Source of the DNA: Microbulbifer hydrolyticus | GTDB lineage: Bacteria; Pseudomonadota; Gammaproteobacteria; Pseudomonadales; Cellvibrionaceae | Assembly: GCF_009931115.1 (NCBI RefSeq) | Contig: NZ_CP047491.1 | Span: 1,997,501 to 2,061,500 of the forward strand | Reading direction: 5' to 3' | Length of the DNA stretch: 64,000 nucleotides | Shown here: in pieces, positions 11,070 to 56,437 of the stretch | Layout: the number at the start of each line of letters is the position of its first letter | Position numbering within the stretch: position 1 is the stretch's first letter | Made by a program: the position numbers and the translations under genes | The notes under the pieces: generated by a model | What the model was told of the DNA's origin: nothing | The model's input: only the letters and a program-made list of their open reading frames with translations | The model's database searches: none

Positions 11070-13451
11070 TTGCCTCAAGGATTTCTCCTCAGCCGCCACA
11101 GCTTTGATCAGCGCGGCAGCACCTGCATCCACTACTGGCTGGCCACACCCGATGGCCCGGTCAAGCTGGTCATTGAAGGCGAGCGCCCGGTCTTTATGGT
11201 GAAGGTGGCGGATCGCGCCCAGGTGACCGAGGCTCTGGCCGGCGTGCCGCATGACTGGCAGCAGCTGGGCTTCCAGACCTTTGGCCGCGAGGAAGCGGCC
11301 ATGCTGTATTTCCCCACCATCGACGCCCACCGCCTGGCCCAGACCCTGTTGCAACATCGCGGCATCGAGATATTCGAAGCGGACTTTCGTCTTCACGACC
11401 GCTACCTGATGGAGCGCTTTGCCCGGGGCGGCCTCTACTTTGAAGGTGTGGCCCGGGCCAGAGACGGCTATACAGAATACCGCCACGTGCGTCTCAAGGG
11501 CGCCGAGGTGCAGCCGGATTTCACGGTGGTTTCCCTGGACGTGGAGTGCTCCGGCCAGGGTGAGCTGTATTCCATCGGTCTCTACGGTGATGGCGTGGAA
11601 GAGGTGCTGATGGTGGGCAAACCGGAGGCCGCCGATACCACCATCCACTGGGTGGATGACGAGCGGGCATTGCTCGAGGCCCTGGAGGCCAGGATCAAAA
11701 GCCTGGACCCGGACATCATCATCGGCTGGGCCGTGGTGGACTTTGATTTTCGGCTACTGCTGAAACGGGCCGGGCGCCATGGCCTGCGCCTGAAGCTGGG
11801 CCGTGGTGGCACAGAGGCCCGCTGGCGGGATGGTCGGGAAGGGGGGCCGGGCTTTGTGACGCTGCCGGGCCGGGTGGTACTGGACGGCATCGACGGACTG
11901 AAGAGCGCCACCTACAGCTTTGATAGCTTCAGCCTGGAGTTCGTGGCCCAGACCCTGCTGGGCAGGGGCAAGGACACCGAAGACGTGGACAACCGCCTGG
12001 CGGCGATTGAACACGACTTTCGCCATAACAAACCCAAGCTTGCCGCCTACAACCTGGAAGACTGCCGCCTGGTCTGGGACATCTACCAGCACACTCGCTT
12101 GCTGGATTACCTGCGCCTGCGGGCCCAGCTTACCGGCCTGGAGCTCGACCGCAGCGGCGGCTCGGTGGCGGCCTTTACCAATCTCTACCTCCCCAGGCTG
12201 CACCGCAGCCGCTATGTGGCGCCCAACCTGCCGGCGGACGGCGGCCTGGCGAGCCCCGGCGGCTATGTGATGGACTCCCGGCCCGGGCTTTACGACAACG
12301 TGCTGGTGCTGGATTTCAAGAGCCTGTATCCCAGCATTATCCGCACCTTCAAGATCGATCCGATGGGCCTGGTTGAAGGATTGGCTGAAGGAGCAGATGA
12401 GGGAACGGAAGAGGGCGCGGCCGGTGACAACAGCATTCCCGGTTTTCGCGGTGCGCGCTTCTCCCGTGACAAACACTTCCTGCCGGACATCATTACCAGT
12501 CTCTGGGCGGAGCGCGACATCGCCAAGCAGGAGCAGGATGCCGCCCGCTCCCAGGCCATCAAGATCATCATGAATTCCTTCTACGGGGTACTGGGAAGTG
12601 GGGGCTGCCGTTTTTACGACACGCGCCTCGCCAGCTCCATCACCCTGCGGGGTCACGAGATCATGCAGCAGACCGCCCGCTGGATTGAGGAGCTGGGTCA
12701 CCAGGTGATCTACGGCGATACCGATTCCACCTTTGTCTGGCTGAGCGGCGGACCGAGTCTGGACGAGGCGGACGCGATCGGCAAAAAGCTCGCCAGCGAG
12801 ATCAATACGCGCTGGCAGAACAAGCTCAAAGACGAGCTGGCGCTGGAGTGCGAACTGGAGCTGGAATTCGAAACCCACTATCAGCGCTTTCTGATGCCCA
12901 CCATTCGCGGCTCTGAGGCGGGCTCCAAGAAACGCTATGCGGGCCTGGTTGTGAAGGCGGGCGAGGAAAAGCTGGTATTCAAGGGCCTGGAAACGGTGCG
13001 CAGCGACTGGACGGCCCTGGCCAAACAGTTCCAGACCCAGCTCTACGGGATGGTGTTTCACGGTGAGGATCCGTCCGACTATATCCGCGAGACGGTGGCG
13101 AAAACCCGGGTAGGGGAGATGGACGAGCAGCTGGTGTATCGCAAGCGACTCCGGCGCAAGTTGGATCAATACGTAAAAAACGTGCCACCCCAAGTCCGCG
13201 CCGCGCGAATGGCCGATGAACACCGCCGCCAAAAGGGACTGGAACCCCGCTATCAGAACAAGGGCTGGATCCGATACGTGATCACCCTCAATGGCCCGGA
13301 GCCGGTGGATCACCGTCAGTCACCAATGGATTACCAGCACTATATCGACCGGCAGCTCAAGCCGGTGGCCGATGCCATATTGCCTTTCATAGAACTCGAT
13401 TTTGACAGCCTGGTGGATGGGCAGCTGGGCCTGTTCGGAGGGGCCGATTGA
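11070..13451 (+). CDS. polB: DNA polymerase II (family B)
   Basis: 793 residues, close to the 783 of E. coli Pol II, and alignable end to end with it. The exonuclease part has Exo I SLDVECSG, Exo II GWAVVDFDF and Exo III YNLEDCRLV. The polymerase part has motif A DFKSLYPSI, motif B KIIMNSFYGVLG and motif C YGDTDSTFV. The protein ends GQLGLFGGAD. The start is TTG: an in-frame TAA at 11046 leaves no upstream ATG, and QGFLLSRH matches the family N-terminus. Oddities are Ala in place of the usual Asn in Exo II, and an acidic low-complexity insertion (EGADEGTEEGAAGD) after motif A. The enzyme restarts replication at damage and does error-prone bypass. A LexA box precedes it. Confidence 0.95.
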   Translation: MPQGFLLSRHSFDQRGSTCIHYWLATPDGPVKLVIEGERPVFMVKVADRAQVTEALAGVPHDWQQLGFQTFGREEAAMLYFPTIDAHRLAQTLLQHRGIEIFEADFRLHDRYLMERFARGGLYFEGVARARDGYTEYRHVRLKGAEVQPDFTVVSLDVECSGQGELYSIGLYGDGVEEVLMVGKPEAADTTIHWVDDERALLEALEARIKSLDPDIIIGWAVVDFDFRLLLKRAGRHGLRLKLGRGGTEARWRDGREGGPGFVTLPGRVVLDGIDGLKSATYSFDSFSLEFVAQTLLGRGKDTEDVDNRLAAIEHDFRHNKPKLAAYNLEDCRLVWDIYQHTRLLDYLRLRAQLTGLELDRSGGSVAAFTNLYLPRLHRSRYVAPNLPADGGLASPGGYVMDSRPGLYDNVLVLDFKSLYPSIIRTFKIDPMGLVEGLAEGADEGTEEGAAGDNSIPGFRGARFSRDKHFLPDIITSLWAERDIAKQEQDAARSQAIKIIMNSFYGVLGSGGCRFYDTRLASSITLRGHEIMQQTARWIEELGHQVIYGDTDSTFVWLSGGPSLDEADAIGKKLASEINTRWQNKLKDELALECELELEFETHYQRFLMPTIRGSEAGSKKRYAGLVVKAGEEKLVFKGLETVRSDWTALAKQFQTQLYGMVFHGEDPSDYIRETVAKTRVGEMDEQLVYRKRLRRKLDQYVKNVPPQVRAARMADEHRRQKGLEPRYQNKGWIRYVITLNGPEPVDHRQSPMDYQHYIDRQLKPVADAILPFIELDFDSLVDGQLGLFGGAD

Positions 13452-13498
13452 GCATCGGCATGGCGTGCAAAATAGGACATCCAGATGAAAAATGTAAA

Positions 13499-13522
13499 AG
13501 TGCGGCATTGGCCGCGTTTTTA
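13499..13522 (+). terminator. Rho-independent terminator of polB
   Basis: GCGGC-ATTG-GCCGC (13502-13515) is followed by GTTTTTATT. It lies about 50 bases past the polB stop and touches the last codon of the convergent lipoprotein gene. Confidence 0.8.
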
Positions 13523-13897
13523 TTGTAGATTCAGGCAGTCGTTACACGCAAAGTACTTAACCTTAGTGCCGCAGCGCAGCTCCGCGGTGTTCCCAGCCCT
13601 TATCTCCCACGTACAGCTCTGACTGCCAATACGCGCTGTTCCATTGGAATAGCAGGGGAGGTAGTCGTATTCATCGTGTAGTTGCTTGAACGATATTGGT
13701 TTTGCGCGCTTGAAGAATTCTGCAGCCGCTTCTTGAGAAACAGTGAAGTCTGAACAAAACTCTTTACTGTTGTTGTCTGTTCCCGAGCCAGTGACTTCAG
13801 TTATCTCTATCTCGTTTGAATCATTAGACTGCGTGCAGCTAATAATTAGCGCCATCGAGATGATAACCAATAAACGAAAACTGTATTTTTTTACCAT
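13520..13897 (-). CDS. Small cysteine-rich lipoprotein next to an amidase
   Basis: 125 residues. A short basic start and hydrophobic run end in lipobox ALIISC (Cys21). The mature part has five or six further cysteines (FCSDF, LPCYS, QSCTW, LRCGT, ACNDC), probably disulfide-bonded in the periplasm. I know no family for it. The start overlaps the end of the upstream amidase gene by seven bases, so the two are made together. A small periplasmic lipoprotein tightly coupled to a peptidoglycan amidase could be an immunity protein or a lysis accessory; this is inference. The composition is AT-rich compared with polB next door. Confidence 0.65.
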   Translation of the reverse strand: MVKKYSFRLLVIISMALIISCTQSNDSNEIEITEVTGSGTDNNSKEFCSDFTVSQEAAAEFFKRAKPISFKQLHDEYDYLPCYSNGTARIGSQSCTWEIRAGNTAELRCGTKVKYFACNDCLNLQ

Positions 13898-14499
13898 GTG
13901 GCACTACTCGCTTCGCTGGCCATTTTGTATGACACTTCAGGGTGTCTGTAGACGTCGGCACTTGTTATATTGAAATGTGTGTAGAGTTCATTAATAAGCC
14001 ATTTGAGAGATGAGTTCTGGAGCGGAGAAATTGCTTCGTATTGCTTTTTTAGTGTGTCATACGATCCGACAATTTCAATTCCTAAAGAATCGCTATTTAA
14101 TGGGAATCGATCCGGATATGGCTTCGCTTTTTCATGACGGTGTAGGCTGCTGACTCTTGAGGAGTACGGCACTCCTTTTTGGAATAACAGCTGAATCGCA
14201 GATTGAAGCTGTAATTTCGTGCAAGATTTAGTTTCGTAACATTTAGATTTTATCTTGCCGACATGGTAGGCCTTCTGGGTAACTCTTGCGGTCTGGTAAA
14301 TTGCTCCTTTCTTATCGATTAGAAAGTGTGCTCCATGCCCGCCTTTGGCATATGAGTTGAAAGTCTGTTGTGCCGTATTGGCTCCCGTCTGGTGTATTAC
14401 GAGGGCATTTACTTTATTCAGTGCGCCTCGCTCTATTCCGGAAAAGACCTTTTGTGTGACTTTAGGATCCAAAAGCAATCCTTGCTTTAGCGTTGACAT
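13891..14499 (-). CDS. N-acetylmuramoyl-L-alanine amidase (amidase_2/PGRP type)
   Basis: 202 residues from the ATG at 14499, which has GGGGAA seven bases upstream; a TTG at 14538 gives 13 more residues but no ribosome site. Amidase features in order: VIHQTG with zinc ligand His36, GAHFLIDKKGAIYQ, AYHVGK, SLGIEIVG and YRHPEVSYK with a second zinc His. It cleaves the bond between N-acetylmuramic acid and L-alanine of murein. There is no signal peptide, so it needs lysis or a secretion system to reach the wall. The C-terminus EASSATW replaces the K-x-D/C-P-G ending of AmpD-like enzymes. It overlaps the lipoprotein gene downstream, is AT-rich, and is flanked by polB and a polB remnant. Confidence 0.8.
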   Translation of the reverse strand: MSTLKQGLLLDPKVTQKVFSGIERGALNKVNALVIHQTGANTAQQTFNSYAKGGHGAHFLIDKKGAIYQTARVTQKAYHVGKIKSKCYETKSCTKLQLQSAIQLLFQKGVPYSSRVSSLHRHEKAKPYPDRFPLNSDSLGIEIVGSYDTLKKQYEAISPLQNSSLKWLINELYTHFNITSADVYRHPEVSYKMASEASSATW

Positions 14500-14615
14500 C
14501 AAATTCCCCAAATACTTTTTCGATGGTGAATATATCAACGATATCTGGCGCTCTCAACGTAGATTAATTCGACTCTGGCACACTTTTTTTATAAAGGCTT
14601 CATAAGTGAGGAATA

Positions 14616-14751
14616 TCAGTCCCCGACGGAATACAAGCACTATATCGACCAGCAGTTCAAGCCGATGCAATATGGCCCTTTATATAACTGGATTTTGACA
14701 GCCTGGTGGATGGGCAGCTTGGACTATTTAGAGCGAGCGAATGAGCATTGG
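14616..14751 (+). pseudogene. Decayed copy of the polB 3' end
   Basis: This stretch matches the last 135 bases of polB (13316-13458). Fourteen bases (14637-14650) and 29 bases (14691-14719) are identical to 13337-13350 and 13398-13426. In between, about seven bases are lost and the frame shifts. Translated in pieces it gives EYKHYIDQQFKPM and DFDSLVDGQLGLFRASE before a stop (14742-14744) that lines up with the polB stop. The corresponding polB residues are DYQHYIDRQLKPV and DFDSLVDGQLGLFGGAD. The amidase/lipoprotein pair lies between the two copies. Confidence 0.9.
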
Positions 14752-14773
14752 CCTGATAAGTCAGGCTCCCCAA

Positions 14774-15460
14774 TTAATCGGCCTTCAGCTGGTCGCGAAT
14801 CGCCTCCCCAACGCCGCGCGCCGAAGGGGGGTTCTGGCCGGTAACCAGGCGTCCATCTACGGTGACGGACTTCATAAAATTATCGGCCTTTTCGTGGATC
14901 GCTCCGCGCTCCTTGAGCTTGGAGGCGAGAAGGAAGGGGACCACATCGTCCTTTTCCACCGCACGCTCCTCTTCATCGGTAAAAACGGAGAGTTTCTTGC
15001 CGTCCACAAACCAGCTTCCATCACTGAGTTTGACGTTGACGAAGGCGGCTGGACCGTGGCACACAGCAGCTACGACCTTGCCGGCTTCGTACATTTCCCG
15101 CACCGCTGCCTGTACATCGGCATGGTCCGGTAAGTCCCACATGGTTCCATGACCACCGGGAAAATAAATGGCGTCATAGCCTGACAGGTCAAGCTCCCTG
15201 AGTGCCGAGGTTGCTTTCAGCTTGGCATTGACATCTTCATTCTCAACGAACTCCCGGTTCACCGAGTCGTCCAAATCCTTGCTACCGGGATCGATCGGAG
15301 CCTTTCCCCCCTCGGGGGTGGCGAAGTCCACGTGAAGGCCAGCCTCGCGCAGGACGCGCCAAGGGTGTGCGGCCTCGGATAGGTGAAAGCCTGTTTTGTC
15401 TCCGGTATCCCCGAGCTTGTCGTGACCGGTCAGGACAAAAAGTACAGGGCGATCAGGCAT
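14774..15460 (-). CDS. DJ-1/PfpI superfamily protein, Hsp31-like
   Basis: 228 residues, single domain, cytosolic. AAVCHGP (Cys134, His135) is the nucleophile elbow, Glu29 in FHLSEAAHPW is the conserved acid, and YFPGGHGTMWDL is the oxyanion loop, as in Hsp31/HchA-like class I glutamine-amidotransferase folds. Members act as glutathione-independent glyoxalases, deglycase-like enzymes or chaperones; which of these applies cannot be read from the sequence. The start has GGAGGT upstream. It lies divergent from the M14-type hydrolase, and its 3' end faces the polB remnant. Confidence 0.85.
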   Translation of the reverse strand: MPDRPVLFVLTGHDKLGDTGDKTGFHLSEAAHPWRVLREAGLHVDFATPEGGKAPIDPGSKDLDDSVNREFVENEDVNAKLKATSALRELDLSGYDAIYFPGGHGTMWDLPDHADVQAAVREMYEAGKVVAAVCHGPAAFVNVKLSDGSWFVDGKKLSVFTDEEERAVEKDDVVPFLLASKLKERGAIHEKADNFMKSVTVDGRLVTGQNPPSARGVGEAIRDQLKAD

Positions 15461-15609: not shown

Positions 15610-16533
15610 ATGAACTCGGACCCCGCAACCTATCCAATCGGTACCCCCGGCGCTCCCTGGGGCGACACGGAACGCGCCGAGTGGCTGTCCCGTCAGATCC
15701 GTCACCGCAGTTACGAGGCGGAGGTGTTGAGCGCAATCGAGAAACTGCGCGCGCGCTTCGACGTGGAAGAGTATGGCTGTCTGGAATACGGCGACGAAAG
15801 CTTTCCGCTGTTGGCGATCCGCAGCCGTGACTGGAATGATGAGCTGCCGGTGGTACTGGTCACCGGTGGGGTACACGGTTACGAGACCAGTGGCGTGCAC
15901 GGTGCGCTGCAGTTCGTGGATCAGTATGCTGCGGATTACGCCGGCCGCGTGAACCTGCTGGTGGCGCCCTGTGTCAGTCCCTGGGCTTACGAGCGTATCC
16001 ATCGCTGGAACCCGAATGCGATCGACCCGAATCGCTCATTCTATGAAGACAGCCCGGCCGGGGAATCCGCGGCGCTGATGCGGCTGGTGGCGCCGGTGCG
16101 CGATCGTGTATTGATGCATATCGACTTGCACGAGACCACGGATACCGACGAAACCGAATTCCGCCCCGCACTCGCGGCCCGCGATGGCAAGCCGTTCACC
16201 CCGGGTGGCATTCCCGACGGCTTCTATCTGGTGGACGACAGTGAGAACCCGCAGCCCGAGTTCCAGCAGGCGGTGATCGCTGCGGTAGAGAAGGTCACCC
16301 ACATCGCCCCGGCCGATGACAACAACGAGATCATCGGCTCAACCGTGGTTGCGCGCGGTGTGATCGAGTATCCGCTTAAAAAGCTCGGCCTGTGTGCCAG
16401 CGTTACCAGTGCCAAGTACAAGACCACAACGGAAGTCTACCCCGACAGCCCCCGTGCCAAGCCCGAGCAGTGCAACCGGGCACAGGCTGTAGCGGTGTGT
16501 GCCGCGATTGATTACGCGCTGGCGCATGGTTGA
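15610..16533 (+). CDS. M14-family metallohydrolase (succinylglutamate desuccinylase/carboxypeptidase-like)
   Basis: 307 residues without signal peptide. GGVHGYETSG supplies the His and Glu zinc ligands, HIDLHETTD the third His, and NPNAIDPNRSF the conserved Asn/Arg that bind the substrate carboxylate in M14 enzymes. GVIEYPL near residue 250 may hold the catalytic Glu. It belongs to the cytosolic M14 group close to AstE/aspartoacylase and probably releases an amino acid or acyl group from a small substrate; the exact one is unknown. It starts with ATG about 150 bases from the divergent DJ-1 gene and converges on a small membrane protein gene. Confidence 0.75.
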   Translation: MNSDPATYPIGTPGAPWGDTERAEWLSRQIRHRSYEAEVLSAIEKLRARFDVEEYGCLEYGDESFPLLAIRSRDWNDELPVVLVTGGVHGYETSGVHGALQFVDQYAADYAGRVNLLVAPCVSPWAYERIHRWNPNAIDPNRSFYEDSPAGESAALMRLVAPVRDRVLMHIDLHETTDTDETEFRPALAARDGKPFTPGGIPDGFYLVDDSENPQPEFQQAVIAAVEKVTHIAPADDNNEIIGSTVVARGVIEYPLKKLGLCASVTSAKYKTTTEVYPDSPRAKPEQCNRAQAVAVCAAIDYALAHG

Positions 16534-33540: not shown

Positions 33541-34944
33541 GTGACCACTTCTGACGCCCAGCACCCCCGCGACTTCCAGTCCCTGCCACTAGAGCCGGCC
33601 CTCCTGAAGAACCTGGAGGACCTCGGCTATACGCGCCTGACGGAAATTCAGGCGGCGGCGCTGCCGGCGATCGTGGAGGGCAGGGATGTGATCGGCCAGG
33701 CCAAGACCGGCTCGGGCAAGACCGTGGCTTTCGGCCTGGGGCTGCTGCACAAGCTGCGGGTGGACCGCTTCCGCGTGCAGTCGCTGGTGCTCTGTCCCAC
33801 CCGGGAATTGGCGGACCAGGTGGCACGGGAGCTGCGCAAGCTGGCGCGGGCCGTTCACAATATCAAGATCCTGACCCTGTGCGGCGGTATGCCGTTCGGC
33901 CCGCAGATTGGCTCCCTCAAGCACGGTGCGCATATCGTGGTGGGCACGCCTGGCCGAATCGAGGACCACCTGCGCAAGGGCAACCTCGACCTGAGCCATG
34001 TAGACACGCTGGTACTGGACGAGGCCGACCGCATGCTGGATATGGGCTTCCAGGCGGTACTGGACCAGATCCTGGCGGAGCTGCCCAGGCAGCGCCAGAC
34101 CCTGCTGTTCTCCGCCACCTACCCAAAGACCATCGATGCGCTGGCTGCCCGTGTCCTGCAGGATCCGGTAAAGGTAGAAGTGACCGCGGCACACACCCAG
34201 AGCACCATCGAGCAGAACTACTACCGGGTGGAAAATAACGAGGCACGCCCGGCTGCGCTGTACCAGCTGCTGGCCAATTACGATGCCTCCTCCGCACTGG
34301 TGTTCTGCAATACCAAGAAAGAAACTGAGGAGGCCGCCCAGGCCCTGAAACGCTCCGGTTTCGCCGCGCTGGCCTTGCACGGGGATATGGAGCAGAAAGA
34401 TCGTGACTGCACCCTGGCACTGTTTTCCAACGGCAGTGCTTCCATTTTGGTAGCGACGGACGTGGCCGCACGGGGGCTGGATATCGAAGAGCTGCCGGTG
34501 GTGGTGAATTACCATCTCTCCCGCGACCCGGAAGTGCACGTGCACAGGGTCGGTCGCACCGGGCGGGCAGGGCAGAAGGGCGTGGCCCTGTCGCTTGTCA
34601 GCAAAAAGGAAATCTACAAGCTGGAGCGGCTGGAAGAGCTGATGCAGCAGAAGATCACCCTGCAGGAAGTACCGGAACTGCCCAGAGCGTTCGCACCCAC
34701 GCGCCCGCTAATGTCTACCCTGCAGATCGACGGCGGTAAGAAACAGAAAGTCCGCCCCGGCGACGTGGTCGGCGCCCTGACCGGCGAAGGCGGCATCGAC
34801 GGCCAGCAGATCGGCAAGATCCAGCTGTTCGACTTCTCCACCTTTGTCGCTGTCGAGCGTCCGGTTGCCAAAAAGGCCCTGAAAAAGCTCGCCGATGGGA
34901 AAATCAAAGGCCGCAAGTTCCGCGCGCGTATTGTGGGTGTCTGA
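33541..34944 (+). CDS. dbpA: ATP-dependent RNA helicase DbpA
   Basis: 467 residues from GTG. DEAD-box motifs in order: TEIQAAALPAI (Q), AKTGSGKT (I), PTRELADQV (Ia), TPGRIEDHL (Ib), VLDEADRML (II), SATYP (III), ALVFCNTKKE (IV), VATDVAARGLDI (V) and HRVGRTGRAG (VI). The C-terminal 75 residues form the DbpA RNA-binding domain (VRPGDVVGALTGEGGI, IGKIQLFDFSTFVAV) that docks on hairpin 92 of 23S rRNA. It helps large-subunit assembly. The last 120 bases occur again, diverged, at 36786-36906. Confidence 0.93.
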   Translation: MTTSDAQHPRDFQSLPLEPALLKNLEDLGYTRLTEIQAAALPAIVEGRDVIGQAKTGSGKTVAFGLGLLHKLRVDRFRVQSLVLCPTRELADQVARELRKLARAVHNIKILTLCGGMPFGPQIGSLKHGAHIVVGTPGRIEDHLRKGNLDLSHVDTLVLDEADRMLDMGFQAVLDQILAELPRQRQTLLFSATYPKTIDALAARVLQDPVKVEVTAAHTQSTIEQNYYRVENNEARPAALYQLLANYDASSALVFCNTKKETEEAAQALKRSGFAALALHGDMEQKDRDCTLALFSNGSASILVATDVAARGLDIEELPVVVNYHLSRDPEVHVHRVGRTGRAGQKGVALSLVSKKEIYKLERLEELMQQKITLQEVPELPRAFAPTRPLMSTLQIDGGKKQKVRPGDVVGALTGEGGIDGQQIGKIQLFDFSTFVAVERPVAKKALKKLADGKIKGRKFRARIVGV

Positions 34945-35089
34945 GAGTTTTAGCTGGATGCTGCCGGCGGTAAGGCGCCGCTGACCGTCGCCGTACCGCG
35001 CACGGCAGGATTTGGCGCCTCGGGTTCGGTACAATTCGTGTCTCCCGAGACCTCTTGCCTCATTTATTTCCTGACCTAAGGAGTCACCT

Positions 35090-36601
35090 GTGAAATTCCG
35101 ATCCCAAGTTGCGCGGATTGCGGCTGCGCTATTGGTGTGCCCGCTGGCCGCGATAGCCGATGTCTCACCCGTTGCGCAAAAGACTGCAGAATACGCGGTG
35201 GAGCAATACGAAGCGGCGATGACCGACACCCTCGCCGATTTGGTGCAATTCAAGACAGTCGCACGGGAAGACCTGCCACTGGAAGAGAACCCTGAGTTCA
35301 CCGGTTTCAAGCGCGCCCTGTGCGACAAGGCTGACGCTCTGGGACTGGAGTGTGAGGACCACGGTTACGTGGTGATTGTTGCACTGGGGGACGGCAAAGA
35401 AAAAATTGGCATTGTCACCCATGGCGATGTGCAGCCAGCCAACCCGGATAAGTGGAAGAAGAGTCCATTTGAACTGGATCGAACCAGTGAGCCAGGCAAG
35501 CTGATCGCTCGTGGGAGCGAGGATGACAAAGGCCCGATTGCCACCGCCCTCTATGCGATGAAGGCAATCAAGGACAAAGGCGTGCCGATGAAACGGCGCG
35601 TGGAGCTGATTGTCTATCTGGCGGAGGAGTCTGATTGGGAGCCGCTGAAGATATTCCTGAAAGATTACGACATGCCCACCTACAACATCACCATCGACGC
35701 GGATTACCCGGTGGTGACTGCAGAGAAAGGTTGGAGTGAAGTGCGTGCCACATTTGCTGACGCCCCGGTTACGGACAAGAACAAGCCCTATCTGAGTGAG
35801 TTTCACGGTGGCTACTTCGGGAGCCAGGTGCCGGATGAGGGCCACGCCAGTATCGTCAATCCAACCCCTGAGCTGGGAAAGGGGATCCGTGCCCGCGCTG
35901 CCAAGCATCCGCAAGTGAAGTTTGAGTTCGCGCAAAAGCAGGGGGTGCTGGAAATCACCGCCCGCGGTGTGGCCACCCACAGCTCCGAGCCGGAACACGG
36001 TATCAATGCGATTGCTTTCCTGGCCGACGCGCTTGGGGATTACGATTGGCCGGCTAACGCTGCCGGCGCCACGGTGCGCTACATCAACGGCCTGATTGGC
36101 ACGGGCATCACCGCGGAACAGTTTGGTGATATCGCCTATAGCGATGACTTTATGGGGCCAATGACTGGCGCTCTCACCATGGTGAAAGTCAGCGACAAGG
36201 GGCTGACAAGTCACCTGAACCTGCGCCGCCCCACCGGCAAGACTGCCGAGTTACTGGAAAAGCAGATCCACAGTGCCATCGAAAACTGGCAGAAGGAGAG
36301 CGGTATCCAGTTGGCAGAACTGGGTGTGCATTTGGGGGAACCCTATCGCGCGGATAATGCACCGCATGTAGAGCCACTGCTGCAAGTATTTCGCCATTTT
36401 ACCGGTATTGAAGATGCGGGTCCGGTATCTATCGGTGGATCCACAAATGCCAAACTGTTGCCGAATGCGGTTAGCTTCGGGCCGTCAATGCCCGATAAGG
36501 CCTACACCGGCCACTCAGAGCACGAATTCATCACCGTGGATCAATTTCGCCTGAATCTGGAAATGTACACGGCGATGATGATCGAGATCTCGAATCTGTA
36601 G
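35090..36601 (+). CDS. Secreted M20-family metallopeptidase (dipeptidase)
   Basis: 503 residues from GTG behind AAGGAG. A signal peptide (about 1-24) precedes the M20 domain. IVTHGDVQPA is the first metal His, ARGSEDDKGP the bridging Asp, YLAEESDWEP the catalytic Glu pair, and ITIDADYP and YTGHSEHEF the remaining ligands. The middle lid domain (about 230-400) matches PepV-like dipeptidases. It should split dipeptides in the periplasm. It sits between dbpA and a remnant that includes a copy of the dbpA 3' end, so it may be an insertion into an older gene order. Confidence 0.85.
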   Translation: MKFRSQVARIAAALLVCPLAAIADVSPVAQKTAEYAVEQYEAAMTDTLADLVQFKTVAREDLPLEENPEFTGFKRALCDKADALGLECEDHGYVVIVALGDGKEKIGIVTHGDVQPANPDKWKKSPFELDRTSEPGKLIARGSEDDKGPIATALYAMKAIKDKGVPMKRRVELIVYLAEESDWEPLKIFLKDYDMPTYNITIDADYPVVTAEKGWSEVRATFADAPVTDKNKPYLSEFHGGYFGSQVPDEGHASIVNPTPELGKGIRARAAKHPQVKFEFAQKQGVLEITARGVATHSSEPEHGINAIAFLADALGDYDWPANAAGATVRYINGLIGTGITAEQFGDIAYSDDFMGPMTGALTMVKVSDKGLTSHLNLRRPTGKTAELLEKQIHSAIENWQKESGIQLAELGVHLGEPYRADNAPHVEPLLQVFRHFTGIEDAGPVSIGGSTNAKLLPNAVSFGPSMPDKAYTGHSEHEFITVDQFRLNLEMYTAMMIEISNL

Positions 36602-36681
36602 GTTTTTCGGGTATCTGACGGCGGCAGGTGTGGGTACTAATAGGGAGCATCACTGGCGTAGGCATGCCTTCAAAATCACCA

Positions 36682-36783
36682 TATTGGGCAGATGAGGCTT
36701 TATTGTCCGAAGTTTGTTGTTCGGAAAACATGTATTTTGTCTGCTCGGGTTTGGCTTGCTCATGATGGTACTCGCCATCGCTA
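36682..36783 (+). pseudogene. Fragment of a copy of the membrane-protein gene at 36980
   Basis: Translated with one frameshift it reads YWADEALL, then LFGKHVFCLLGFGLLMMVLAI. The intact gene from 37097 reads HWADDVLM, then FDKGAFYLLGVGLGMMALAI. It stops abruptly where the dbpA copy begins, which marks a recombination joint. Confidence 0.8.
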
Positions 36784-36785
36784 AC

Positions 36786-36906
36786 CTTTTTCGACTTCTC
36801 TACCTTCGTTGCAGTCGAGCGGTCGGTTGTCAAGAAATCGCTGAAAAACTTGGCGGACGGGAAGCCCAAGGAACGCAAGTTTCGCGCGTGTATTATTGGA
36901 GTGTGA
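36786..36906 (+). pseudogene. Diverged copy of the dbpA 3' end
   Basis: It encodes 39 residues, FDFSTFVAVERSVVKK and onward to RACIIGV and a stop at 36904-36906. By hand alignment about 30 of 39 match the DbpA C-terminus coded at 34825-34944, with the same stop position. There is no start or upstream domain, so it cannot be functional alone. Confidence 0.92.
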
Positions 36907-53878: not shown

Positions 53879-56437
53879 ATGGGGCAGGGATTGTTGCGAA
53901 GGCCTTGTGCTGATAGTGGCAAGGTGGGGCTTTCCGTCACCGGTGGGTTATGGCTATTCGGTATTGGCATTGCCCAGGTCGCGTTGTGGCCGCGGTTGCC
54001 GGGCCTGTCCACGGCACTTTGCGCTGTCTATTTCAGCCTGGTTCTGGTTTTACTGCTGGCGGCAGTACTAGTTGCTCGCCGGGGGTATGGGCGACCGTCA
54101 AAATGGCTAATGGTACGTGGCGCTTGCTATTGGTTGTTGCCCTTCCTCATCGGCGCCGGCTGGGGGCTTTATTGGGATCGCGCAGCGCTGGATGCGCGTT
54201 TGCCACCGGCTCTTCACGGCACGGATTTTGAAGTCACCCTGCAAATCACTTCTTTGCCCGAGTCCCGACCTGCCGTATTCCGCTATGGCCGAGGCCACGG
54301 CTCCGGATCAACGGCGCTGGATGTGCAGTTTCTCGCGGAAGTCGAGTCTGCTGAACATGCTGCGCTCGTGGGACAAAAGGTACTGGTGTCCTGGTATGGC
54401 AGCGACCGTATCGCTGAGATCCGGGCGGGCAGCCGCTGGACCATGCGGTTGCGGCTAAAGCGCCCGCGGGGCAGCGTGAATCCCCATACGTTTGATTACG
54501 AAGCCTGGCTATTGCAGGAGGGCGTTTTCGCAACAGGCTACATCCGTGAAAAGGCGCTGCGGCCCGTGTTGCTGGAGGACGGCGCAGGCCTCTACCGCTT
54601 ACGGGAGTCAATCCGGGACCGGGTGACCGCTGCGAACCTCGGTTTTGGACGGCTTCTGCGCGCGCTGCTACTCGGGGATAAATCCGGCTTGACGGATACC
54701 GACCGGAAGGTTTTGCAGAGCACGGGTACCGCGCACCTGTTGGCGATCTCCGGGCTGCATGTGGGCATGGTCGCCGGGTTCTTCCTGCTGATCGGCGGGT
54801 ATTTAGGACGCCTGTTGTCCCCGTTCGGTTCGTGGAACTCGCGCCTGCTCGCCGGGTCGGGTGGACTGGCCGCCGCCGCGGGTTACACACTGATATGTGG
54901 GGCACCGTTGTCCGCGCAACGGGCCCTGATCATGACAGCAGTCGCCATCAGCGTGTGGATATGGGGCAGGCGTGTTGCGTCCGGGCTGGCATTTGCCCTG
55001 GCTGTGGCGATGGTATTACTGCTGCAGCCATTGGCTGTGCTCAACCCGGGGTTCTGGCTTTCGTTCCTCGCTGTGGCAGCGTTGCTGCTGTGCTACAGCG
55101 GCCGGACAGTGTCTGGTCCGGACGTTTTTCATGCGAGCGAATCGCGCTCGACCCTCGCGAAACTGCTCAGTTATGTCGGTCAGTACATCAAACCCCACAC
55201 GATCGTCGCGGTGCGCAGTCAATGGGTTGTGATACTGGCGCTTCTGCTGCCGTCTCTCCTGTTTTTTTCCGGAGCCAGTGCCTCCGCACTACTGGTCAAT
55301 CTGGTGGCGATTCCGTGGATGGGCCTGCTGATCCTGCCCTCGATCATGCTCGGCGCAGTGATGCCAATGGGGATCAGTGGCTTCTGCTGGCAGTTTGCCG
55401 ACTGGCAGCTCGCGCTACTCATGCGGTTTCTCCACGGGGTGGACGGGCGCTTCCCCAGCTGGCAATGGCTGACCGCGCCCGGTTGGTGGGTGGTTGGTCT
55501 CGCACTGGTCAGCGTGCTTATCCTCATGCTGCCGCGGGGCTTTCCCGGTCGCTTGCTGGGGTGGTGCATGCTGCCCGTTGTATTGGCTCCAGCGTTACCC
55601 TGGCGCTCCCAGGAGCCAACAGCGCTGAGTGTCACGGTGCTCGACGTGGGTCAGGGCCTGGCGGTAGCGGTGGCGTCGGATGACCAGTATCTGGTACTGG
55701 ATACGGGGGCTGGAATCAGCGGGGGCTGGAGCGCCGGAAGCAGTGTGGTGGCTCCGTACTTGGTCGGGGAGGGCGCTACCGAAATCGCAGCCTTGGTGGT
55801 GAGCCACGGTGATCGCGATCACGCGGGTGGTGCCGCAGGGCTTGCGGAGGTGTTGCCCGTCAGCGAGGTCATAGCGCCCGGCGACCTGGGTGCGCGCCTG
55901 GCCGGTACCTTTCCGCGGCCCACGACCAGCACAGGTTGCACCGCGGGCGAAAGGCTGTCGGTGGCGGATCTCAACATTCAGTGGTTATGGCCACCGGCGA
56001 GCCCGCGCGTCGATGGCGAAGAAAATGATCACAGCTGTGTGGCATTGCTGGACTGGCGTGGAGTGCGAATCCTGTTTACCGGCGATATATCCCGCAAGGT
56101 GGAGCGACGATTGGCCGCGCTATATCCGGATTTTGCCCCGGTTGACCTGTTGATAGTGCCGCACCATGGATCCCGTACTTCCTCATCGGCGACTCTACTG
56201 GATTGGTCGCAACCGGCACGTGCGGTGTTCAGTGCGGGGTACCGGCATCACTTCAGCCATCCGCACCCCGCGGTCGTGCAGCGGCTGTCAAGTCGCGGGG
56301 TGAAACTATCCAACACTGCGGATGCCGGCGCGGTGCGCTTTCTCTGGCTAGCGGGATCCGTTGTGCCCGAAGTGTATTGCGCGCGTGATTCCGGACGATT
56401 CTGGCGGACCCTTGGGCCATTAAGCGAGTGTGGCTAA
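53879..56437 (+). CDS. comEC: ComEC/Rec2-family DNA uptake channel
   Basis: 852 residues. The N-terminal part has helices and an OB-like DUF4131 domain (about 55-210). The competence domain (about 250-520) has LLLGDKSGLTDTDRKVLQSTGTAHLLAISGLHVGM and GAPLSAQRALIM. From about 580 a metallo-beta-lactamase-like domain follows: LDVGQGLAVAV, VLDTGAG, VSHGDRDHAGG, LFTGDIS and VPHHGSRTSSS. It passes single-stranded DNA across the inner membrane. The gene is followed by others in the same direction but has no clear partner for type IV pili in this window. Confidence 0.93.
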   Translation: MGQGLLRRPCADSGKVGLSVTGGLWLFGIGIAQVALWPRLPGLSTALCAVYFSLVLVLLLAAVLVARRGYGRPSKWLMVRGACYWLLPFLIGAGWGLYWDRAALDARLPPALHGTDFEVTLQITSLPESRPAVFRYGRGHGSGSTALDVQFLAEVESAEHAALVGQKVLVSWYGSDRIAEIRAGSRWTMRLRLKRPRGSVNPHTFDYEAWLLQEGVFATGYIREKALRPVLLEDGAGLYRLRESIRDRVTAANLGFGRLLRALLLGDKSGLTDTDRKVLQSTGTAHLLAISGLHVGMVAGFFLLIGGYLGRLLSPFGSWNSRLLAGSGGLAAAAGYTLICGAPLSAQRALIMTAVAISVWIWGRRVASGLAFALAVAMVLLLQPLAVLNPGFWLSFLAVAALLLCYSGRTVSGPDVFHASESRSTLAKLLSYVGQYIKPHTIVAVRSQWVVILALLLPSLLFFSGASASALLVNLVAIPWMGLLILPSIMLGAVMPMGISGFCWQFADWQLALLMRFLHGVDGRFPSWQWLTAPGWWVVGLALVSVLILMLPRGFPGRLLGWCMLPVVLAPALPWRSQEPTALSVTVLDVGQGLAVAVASDDQYLVLDTGAGISGGWSAGSSVVAPYLVGEGATEIAALVVSHGDRDHAGGAAGLAEVLPVSEVIAPGDLGARLAGTFPRPTTSTGCTAGERLSVADLNIQWLWPPASPRVDGEENDHSCVALLDWRGVRILFTGDISRKVERRLAALYPDFAPVDLLIVPHHGSRTSSSATLLDWSQPARAVFSAGYRHHFSHPHPAVVQRLSSRGVKLSNTADAGAVRFLWLAGSVVPEVYCARDSGRFWRTLGPLSECG

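What the first reader, a model, noticed from the sequence alone, without database searches (positions are those of the whole stretch)
13316..14751. Amidase/lipoprotein pair bracketed by polB and a decayed polB 3' end
The last 135 bases of polB (13316-13458) recur at 14616-14751 in the same orientation, with identical blocks of 14 and 29 bases, a small deletion, a frameshift and an aligned stop codon. Exactly between the copies lie two AT-rich genes on the opposite strand. This is direct evidence that the pair entered at the polB 3' end, either by insertion with duplication or by recombination with a donor carrying its own polB end. The divergence between copies fits a donor from a related species better than a fresh duplication.
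Basis: partly seen in the sequence, partly recalled or inferred. Interest (0 to 1): 0.8.

Follow-up and report, generated by a model that had tools for sequence, protein, structure and literature searches.

The report
Toxin–immunity pair spliced beside polB
In a marine bacterium, a probable wall-cutting toxin and its antidote were spliced in right after a DNA-polymerase gene, leaving a decayed copy of that gene's end as a scar, and some sister species carry similar scars near the same gene, so this stretch of chromosome seems to take in new genes repeatedly.

Summary
The last 136 bases of polB plus about 11 beyond (13316-13462) recur at 14616-14755, same strand, with a 7-base deletion and an aligned stop (Smith-Waterman 143; best of 2000 shuffles 29). 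Between them lie a lipoprotein gene and a zinc-amidase gene on the other strand, 43.6% GC against 62% in polB. The genus is inferred to be Microbulbifer. There the polB region is a recombination hotspot: of 36 polB loci, 12 carried polB fragments, all on polB's strand; N-terminal pieces lay upstream and C-terminal pieces downstream, with one internal exception. Another cargo shows the process most clearly: a donor-like polB-cargo arrangement, an empty polB-neighbour arrangement and a junction of the two exist in different genomes. I favour one-sided homologous recombination (homology-facilitated illegitimate recombination) bringing an effector-immunity pair. A similar displacement has been proposed for Vibrio T6SS arrays; the housekeeping anchor and mixed cargo make this a variant.

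The parts
11070..13451 (+). polB, DNA polymerase II, 793 aa, intact; homologous anchor
   Evidence: NCBIfam NF004421 DNA polymerase II, 1162.7 bits, cut-off 570; ORF
13316..13462 (+). 3' part of polB plus about 11 bases beyond the stop that recurs downstream
13520..13897 (-). small lipoprotein (lipobox around Cys21), probable immunity protein
   Evidence: no Pfam or NCBIfam family; 9 homologs at E <= 0.001; lipobox read by eye
13891..14499 (-). N-acetylmuramoyl-L-alanine amidase (Amidase_2), probable antibacterial effector
   Evidence: PF01510 E 3.3e-18; AmpD-like fold; invariant H36, H186, E196 in 22 aligned sequences
13490..14588 (.). unit conserved with two other genomes of the genus (lipoprotein, amidase and its upstream region)
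   Evidence: blastn 80% (G024, L072) and 79% (G059, L089) over 1.1 kb
14616..14755 (+). decayed polB 3' end (scar)
14774..15460 (-). DJ-1/PfpI family gene beyond the scar; found only in the window among the 33 loci searched for it
   Evidence: PF01965; tblastn
15610..16533 (+). AstE/AspA-like gene ('F1'), the commonest gene family near polB in these loci
   Evidence: PF24827 28.1 bits, cut-off 25
33541..34944 (+). dbpA, RNA helicase, with its own 3' scar downstream (second case in the window)
   Evidence: NF008744 over cut-off
35090..36601 (+). M20-type dipeptidase gene lying between dbpA and the dbpA scar
   Evidence: NF004809 over cut-off
36781..36903 (+). decayed dbpA 3' end, residues 427-467
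   Evidence: tblastn 73% identity, E 9e-12

Best explanation
Incoming DNA carrying [polB 3' part - lipoprotein - amidase] paired with the resident polB by homology. On the left, ordinary homologous exchange kept polB whole; on the right the incoming end joined, without long homology, about 136 bases (or more, before decay) ahead of the resident stop. The resident polB end was thereby pushed 1.3 kb downstream, where it decayed (homology-facilitated illegitimate recombination, HFIR, or its equivalent with a circular molecule). The same kind of event has happened repeatedly at polB, and apparently at the AstE/AspA-like gene F1 and at dbpA, in Microbulbifer. The cargo here is most likely an antibacterial amidase with its lipoprotein immunity protein, perhaps delivered by the genome's type VI secretion system. 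Shown: the duplication; the recurrence and its polarity; donor-like, empty and joined states for another cargo; the conserved gene pair. Inferred: that this window's event ran the same way, that the pair is toxin and antidote, that T6SS delivers it, and the uptake route.
For: Census of 36 polB loci (35 of the 48 genus genomes searched have polB; plus Microbulbifer sp. NKW57): 17 matches in 12 loci, all same strand; N-terminal pieces upstream in 6 of 6 loci, C-terminal pieces downstream in 5 of 5 loci (6 tails), one internal piece downstream (L065) outside the rule. L052: collinear with L047 and L068 from polB through two cargo genes (methanethiol-oxidase-like and, label recalled, HupE-like) to position 2626-2629, then from 2655 collinear with the polB-F1 junction of L063; L058 shares that junction and keeps a longer tail from polB residue about 711. 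The tails of L052 and L058 end in the GTGTAGAATGCC of the polB-F1 junction seen in L060 and L063. L089: the pair is preceded by the last polB codon, its stop and about 10 bases (18 identical bases, E 0.001), behind an F1 fragment, which suggests that polB-pair linkage predates that rearrangement. No integrase or transposase family among 10 cargo proteins scanned with Pfam, two of which matched no family, nor in the two L052 cargo proteins (NCBIfam). Partial self-copies: 49 in 39 hotspot loci (about 817 kb scanned) against 4 in 22 other stretches of the own genome (438 kb). F1 census of 39 loci, 32 with full F1: 21 of 21 fragments same strand, pieces of the C-terminal half downstream in 11 loci. 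Pair: a small lipoprotein-like ORF follows the amidase, overlapping or abutting, in 5 of 6 loci outside the genus and next to a decayed amidase beside YD/RHS repeats in the sixth.
Against: No relative with polB directly joined to the DJ-1 gene (this window's exact empty site) was found; DJ-1 was seen only in the window of 33 loci. The right junction is not resolved to the base. F1 fragments break the polarity rule in L031, L065 and L107/L089. The tail groups with its own polB, without support here and at 94/92 in L031, which in-situ duplication would also give. Same-strand fragments are not special to the hotspot: the 4 control fragments were same strand too. The dbpA scar was seen only in the window among 30 dbpA loci fetched, though these hold just 1.5 kb of flank. 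A left boundary about 12 bases after the polB stop is shared by many different cargos, which random joining does not explain. VgrG and Hcp lie about 1.58 Mb away, so T6SS delivery is unproven. ComEC is in 48 of 48 genomes, but it also rings in E. coli and 9 other control genomes, so it says little about uptake.
Confidence: 0.62

Rival explanations
1. In-situ duplicative insertion: replication or repair switched from polB to foreign DNA and back into polB about 136 bases upstream of the stop, so the tail is a copy of the genome's own polB end.
For: The tail joins its own polB in the tree, 69/0 here and 94/92 for L031_T1; one strand only, and no mobility genes needed.
Against: In L052 and L058 the working polB end and the tail have different termini, and the tail is attached to the resident neighbour F1, which a self-copy would not give.
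Confidence: 0.2
2. Remnant of an integrative element whose recombinase targets the polB 3' end and restores the gene, leaving displaced attachment-site DNA.
For: The gene end is restored and the old end displaced; a GCATCGGxATG-like flank follows the stop in 13 of 23 distinct contexts (5 or more of the first 7 bases; my count by eye, in which L044 and L047 share a longer flank).
Against: Tails differ in length and start (L058 from residue 711); N-terminal pieces also occur upstream of polB; F1 and dbpA show similar scars; no recombinase family in the cargo proteins scanned.
Confidence: 0.07
3. The pair is an old vertical resident of the region, and the polB fragments are debris of repeated polB gain, loss and tandem duplication.
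For: polB is present in 35 of 48 genomes; polB heads remain in L071 and L072 while the intact polB lies on another contig; the amidase is 87-88% identical in G024 and G059, close to polB itself (89% and 92%).
Against: The polarity of polB fragments and the L052/L047/L063 chimera point to insertion between an intact gene and its own end.
Confidence: 0.08

Closest known systems
Displacement of T6SS effector-immunity modules in Vibrio cholerae (PMC5361080, Sci Rep 2017; passages read; I recall the first author as Kirchberger)
   Same: The paper proposes, as a possibility, that an incoming module anchors by homology at one end and joins illegitimately at the other, shifting older genes and in one case an effector 3' end downstream; arrays of immunity genes without effector result. 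Here L031 and L035 hold the lipoprotein without a detectable amidase.
   Different: There the anchor is the T6SS cluster itself; here it is a housekeeping polymerase gene far from the T6SS, and cargo includes metabolic genes.
Homology-facilitated illegitimate recombination (described for Acinetobacter, Streptococcus pneumoniae and Pseudomonas stutzeri; passages of PMC2884548 and the search listing of PMC3240628 seen; primary papers not read)
   Same: One homologous end, one non-homologous end, insertion of non-homologous DNA.
   Different: Experiments there; here inferred from scars across genomes, with no experiment.
AmpD / PGRP-type Amidase_2 enzymes, including AmpDh3 of Pseudomonas aeruginosa
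   Same: Fold and zinc-site pattern (AmpD residues recalled).
   Different: 18% identity to AmpD and 17% to AmpDh3; a glutamate in place of the usual last zinc ligand (comparison recalled); partner lipoprotein without a matching solved fold.
Integrative elements that use gene 3' ends (recalled)
   Same: Gene 3' end restored, old end displaced.
   Different: No recombinase found in the cargo scanned, variable scar length, several target genes, both gene ends used.

Membership tests
HFIR event | homologous anchor on one side | tested here: met
   L052 collinear with L047 across polB and cargo; for the window itself inferred from polB-lipoprotein adjacency shared with L031 and L062
HFIR event | non-homologous join at the other side | tested here: inconclusive
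   Junction narrowed to about 30 bases (L052 2626-2655, window 14588-14616), not to the base
HFIR event | dependence on RecA and on incoming DNA | not testable with these tools
   needs experiments
T6SS-type effector-immunity pair | toxic enzyme domain with intact active site | tested here: met
   Amidase_2; H36, H186, E196 invariant in 22 aligned sequences; toxicity itself untested
T6SS-type effector-immunity pair | adjacent co-inherited immunity gene | tested here: met
   lipoprotein-like ORF next to the amidase (intact or decayed) in 6 of 6 loci outside the genus, read from the ORF tables, and in 6 genus genomes, one with a decayed amidase; that it confers immunity is untested
T6SS-type effector-immunity pair | T6SS in the genome | tested here: met
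   TssC/VipB in 38 of 48 genomes including the own; VgrG and Hcp in the own genome
T6SS-type effector-immunity pair | linkage to VgrG, Hcp, PAAR or Rhs | tested here: not met
   only VgrG-type and Hcp matches of the own genome about 1.58 Mb away; one pair outside the genus lies beside YD repeats (over cut-off) with RHS_core below cut-off; PAAR not searched
Integrative element at a gene 3' end | recombinase gene within the element | tested here: not met
   none among 10 cargo proteins (Pfam) nor in the two L052 cargo proteins (NCBIfam); short ORFs not scanned
Integrative element at a gene 3' end | fixed attachment core | tested here: inconclusive
   variable scar starts but a shared left boundary about 12 bases after the stop

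The most novel reading that the evidence does not exclude
The polB gene end works as a recombinase-free cassette site. Each cargo is bracketed by polB ends, so cargos can be excised, swapped and stacked by ordinary homologous recombination between the ends, an integron-like array (L031 has two tails in series) that uses a housekeeping gene instead of an integrase site.
Probability: 0.12. Interest if true: 0.72.

Novelty: new variant of a known kind. Interest (0 to 1): 0.46.

Why it matters
Small gene insertions in bacteria often leave no trace of how they arrived. Here the displaced gene ends are readable fossils: they give strand, side and, for one cargo, the donor-like and empty states. The rule 'an intact gene with its own decayed end beyond the cargo' can be searched for in any genus, giving a way to count one-sided recombination and to trace how toxin-immunity pairs spread outside their secretion clusters.

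Tried and rejected
Phage origin of the amidase: no match in the phage collection. Relation to a solved structure by sequence: none at E 0.001. Fold of the lipoprotein: model mean pLDDT 81, no PDB match at E 0.001 or better, so no known inhibitor fold can be named. A stem-loop or recombination core at the polB stop (GCCGAT-TGAGC-ATCGGC in the window): judged by eye it is broken in several genomes, so I did not build on it. Foreign origin of the remnant by tree: 135 columns cannot decide, the bootstrap had not settled, and six rows were left out beforehand (two duplicate genomes and the tails L031_T2, L051_T, L052_T, L058_T). A mosaic break within the window's own polB: the nearest relative changes along the gene but differences are small. 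T6SS presence and the pair: all 8 genomes with a lipoprotein match at E 1e-20 or better have TssC, but 38 of 48 do anyway, so this decides nothing. F1 promoter: the GTGTAGAAT seen at polB-F1 junctions resembles F1's own upstream region in many genomes, so that short string alone is not a polB fossil; the preceding coding bases are.

Limits: the control stretches come from one genome (20 fetched, 2 from the window), the hotspot set from many. The call prints 851 kb for the 39 hotspot loci, counting the whole window; about 817 kb was scanned. These 39 loci hold two genomes twice (L033/L108, L042/L110) and two loci without polB (L071, L072), the 49 matches include repeat-rich and antisense ORFs, and one of the 4 control matches is the dbpA scar of this window, so the ratio is rough. 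The 36-locus census removes those four loci and adds L054; its flanks are uneven (L051 has nothing upstream of polB, L046 2.3 kb, L058 3.9 kb). L045 was left out of all counts as a cut contig. In the F1 census L089 and L107 are one genome, so one fragment is counted twice. The link between named loci and G handles rests on equal contig lengths and positions. Literature: seven answered queries; the query on polB as an insertion hotspot returned no paper, and no title or abstract start in the other listings named polB scars in Microbulbifer. I read passages of PMC5361080 and PMC2884548 only.
Full report
The observation. Bases 13316-13462 (last 136 bases of polB and about 11 more) recur at 14616-14755 on the same strand at 82-85% identity. 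A gapped alignment scores 143 against a shuffle maximum of 29; with both identical blocks masked it scores 57 against 27 (2000 shuffles each). The second copy has a 7-base deletion, hence a frameshift, and an aligned stop. Between the copies, on the other strand, lie a 125-aa lipoprotein gene (13520-13897) and a 202-aa Amidase_2 gene (13891-14499). The unit is 43.6% GC, polB 62.0%.

The organism. The window is part of a 4.2-Mb single-contig genome. Of 27 named loci fetched with its polB, 23 are Microbulbifer, and named contigs agree in length with same-genus handles, so the genus is inferred to be Microbulbifer; the strain itself is unnamed here. polB is present in 35 of the 48 genus genomes searched (28 of 37 including the own, 7 of 11).

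polB is a hotspot in the genus. The commonest gene family near polB is an AstE/AspA-like gene, called F1 here. It starts 37-47 bases after polB in L032, L060, L063 and L066. In other genomes different cargo lies next to polB, in 23 distinct immediate contexts by my clustering of 37 loci. Five loci carry a decayed polB 3' end further downstream: the window, L031 (two in series), L051, L052, L058. Six carry polB N-terminal pieces upstream: L041, L044, L060, L061, L062, L107. In the census of 36 loci these are, with one more, 17 matches in 12 loci, all on polB's strand, all N-terminal pieces upstream and all C-terminal pieces downstream; the one more, L065 residues 382-405, is internal and downstream. 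In L071 and L072 a polB head remains at such a region while the intact polB lies on another contig.

Not only polB. F1 leaves fragments too: 21 of 21 on F1's strand (one counted twice), pieces of its C-terminal half downstream in 11 loci (L072 counted for one of its two F1 copies), but upstream pieces in L031, L065 and L107/L089, against the rule. In this window dbpA (33541-34944) is followed by a dipeptidase gene and then a decayed dbpA end (36781-36903); the 30 dbpA loci fetched, with 1.5 kb of flank, show no second such case. A scan for partial self-copies found 49 in 39 hotspot loci (about 817 kb) and 4 in 22 other stretches (438 kb); all of both sets are same strand. The redundancy of that set is told under Tried and rejected.

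Direction of one event. L047 and L068 have polB followed by a methanethiol-oxidase-like gene (NF052453, below its cut-off) and a HupE-like gene (label recalled) and no detected scar. L060 and L063 have polB joined to F1. L052 is collinear with L047 from polB through both cargo genes to position 2626, and from 2655 on is collinear with the polB-F1 junction of L063, beginning about 70 bases before the polB stop. L058 has the same right junction with a longer tail, starting near polB residue 711 and broken by deletions, and a further 5.5 kb of cargo next to polB. Thus the scar is the resident's old end, still joined to its neighbour, and the working polB end goes with the cargo. Tails shrink by decay, so the 136 bases in the window may once have been more.

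The pair's history. The lipoprotein is found beside polB in the window, L031 and L062, and one gene further off in L035; the amidase is intact in the window, decayed to about its last 50 codons in L062, and not detected in L031 and L035 or their genomes. In G024 (L072) the pair lies behind an F1 tail. In G059 (L089) it lies behind an F1 fragment followed by the last codon of polB, its stop and about 10 following bases, 18 bases identical to the window (E 0.001). So the pair was probably linked to a polB end before that rearrangement. In G024 and G059 the amidase is 87-88% and the lipoprotein 68-70% identical to the window's, and the conserved unit spans about 13490-14588. The remnant in the window groups with its own polB without useful support (69/0), L031's with its own polB at 94/92; a foreign donor for the remnant is therefore not supported.

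What the pair does. The amidase model (pLDDT 96.6) matches AmpD and other amidases of this fold. H36, H186 and E196 are invariant in 22 aligned sequences; the spacing of ten from H186 to E196 equals the His-Asp spacing that I recall for AmpD. It has no evident signal peptide (by eye), and its partner gene, overlapping by a few bases, encodes a lipoprotein with a conserved cysteine pattern. Of 369 genomes drawn from the class, 5 besides the own have a relative at E 1e-20, giving 6 loci; in all 6 a small lipoprotein-like ORF (by eye) is the neighbour, and in one, with a decayed amidase, the pair lies beside YD repeats of RHS type. A wall amidase without export signal and with a lipoprotein partner is what an exported antibacterial effector with periplasmic immunity looks like. 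Delivery by T6SS is plausible (TssC in 38 of 48 genomes) but unlinked: VgrG and Hcp are about 1.58 Mb away.

Mechanism and rank. One-sided homologous recombination with a non-homologous join on the other side explains polarity, variable scar length, mixed cargo without recombinases among those scanned and the chimera of L052. In-situ duplicative insertion remains the main rival. What is left unexplained is a common left boundary about 12 bases past the polB stop among unrelated cargos; this is the strongest hint that something more regular, such as exchange of cassettes between polB ends, may be at work.

Against the literature. PMC5361080 (passages read) proposes a mechanism akin to HFIR for T6SS immunity arrays in Vibrio cholerae, including a shifted effector 3' end, and PMC2884548 (passages) argues that illegitimate recombination, in part assisted by homology, makes much small-scale genome diversity. 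The present case differs in anchor (housekeeping gene) and cargo (immunity pair, metabolic genes, others). It is a new variant of a known kind.

Noticed in passing
window 33541-36903: Second scar of the same type: dbpA, then a dipeptidase gene, then a decayed dbpA 3' end (residues 427-467). Of the other dbpA loci fetched, L142, L144 and L145 have the same dipeptidase downstream of dbpA and L149 has it on the other side.
   Followed up: partly
L031:12834-12965 and L031:14020-14097: Two polB tails in series downstream of one polB, with the lipoprotein alone before the first and a decayed F1 piece between them.
   Followed up: partly
window 13452-13462 and the same position in many relatives: A GCATCGGxATG-like flank after the polB stop is shared by unrelated downstream contexts and similarity stops near base 12.
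   Followed up: partly
L065:12713-12784: A 24-residue internal polB piece, 100% identical at protein level to residues 382-405, 2.4 kb downstream of polB; it fits neither head nor tail rule.
   Followed up: no
L060, L063, L032 polB stop: The polB stop codon TAG is part of a GTGTAGAAT string resembling the element that precedes F1 in many genomes, suggesting polB was once fused to F1's promoter region.
   Followed up: partly
window 54665-55534: A ComEC/Rec2 competence gene lies about 41 kb downstream of polB; in several relatives (for example G032, G008, G015) it is on the polB contig within a few tens of kb.
   Followed up: no
   Followed up: no
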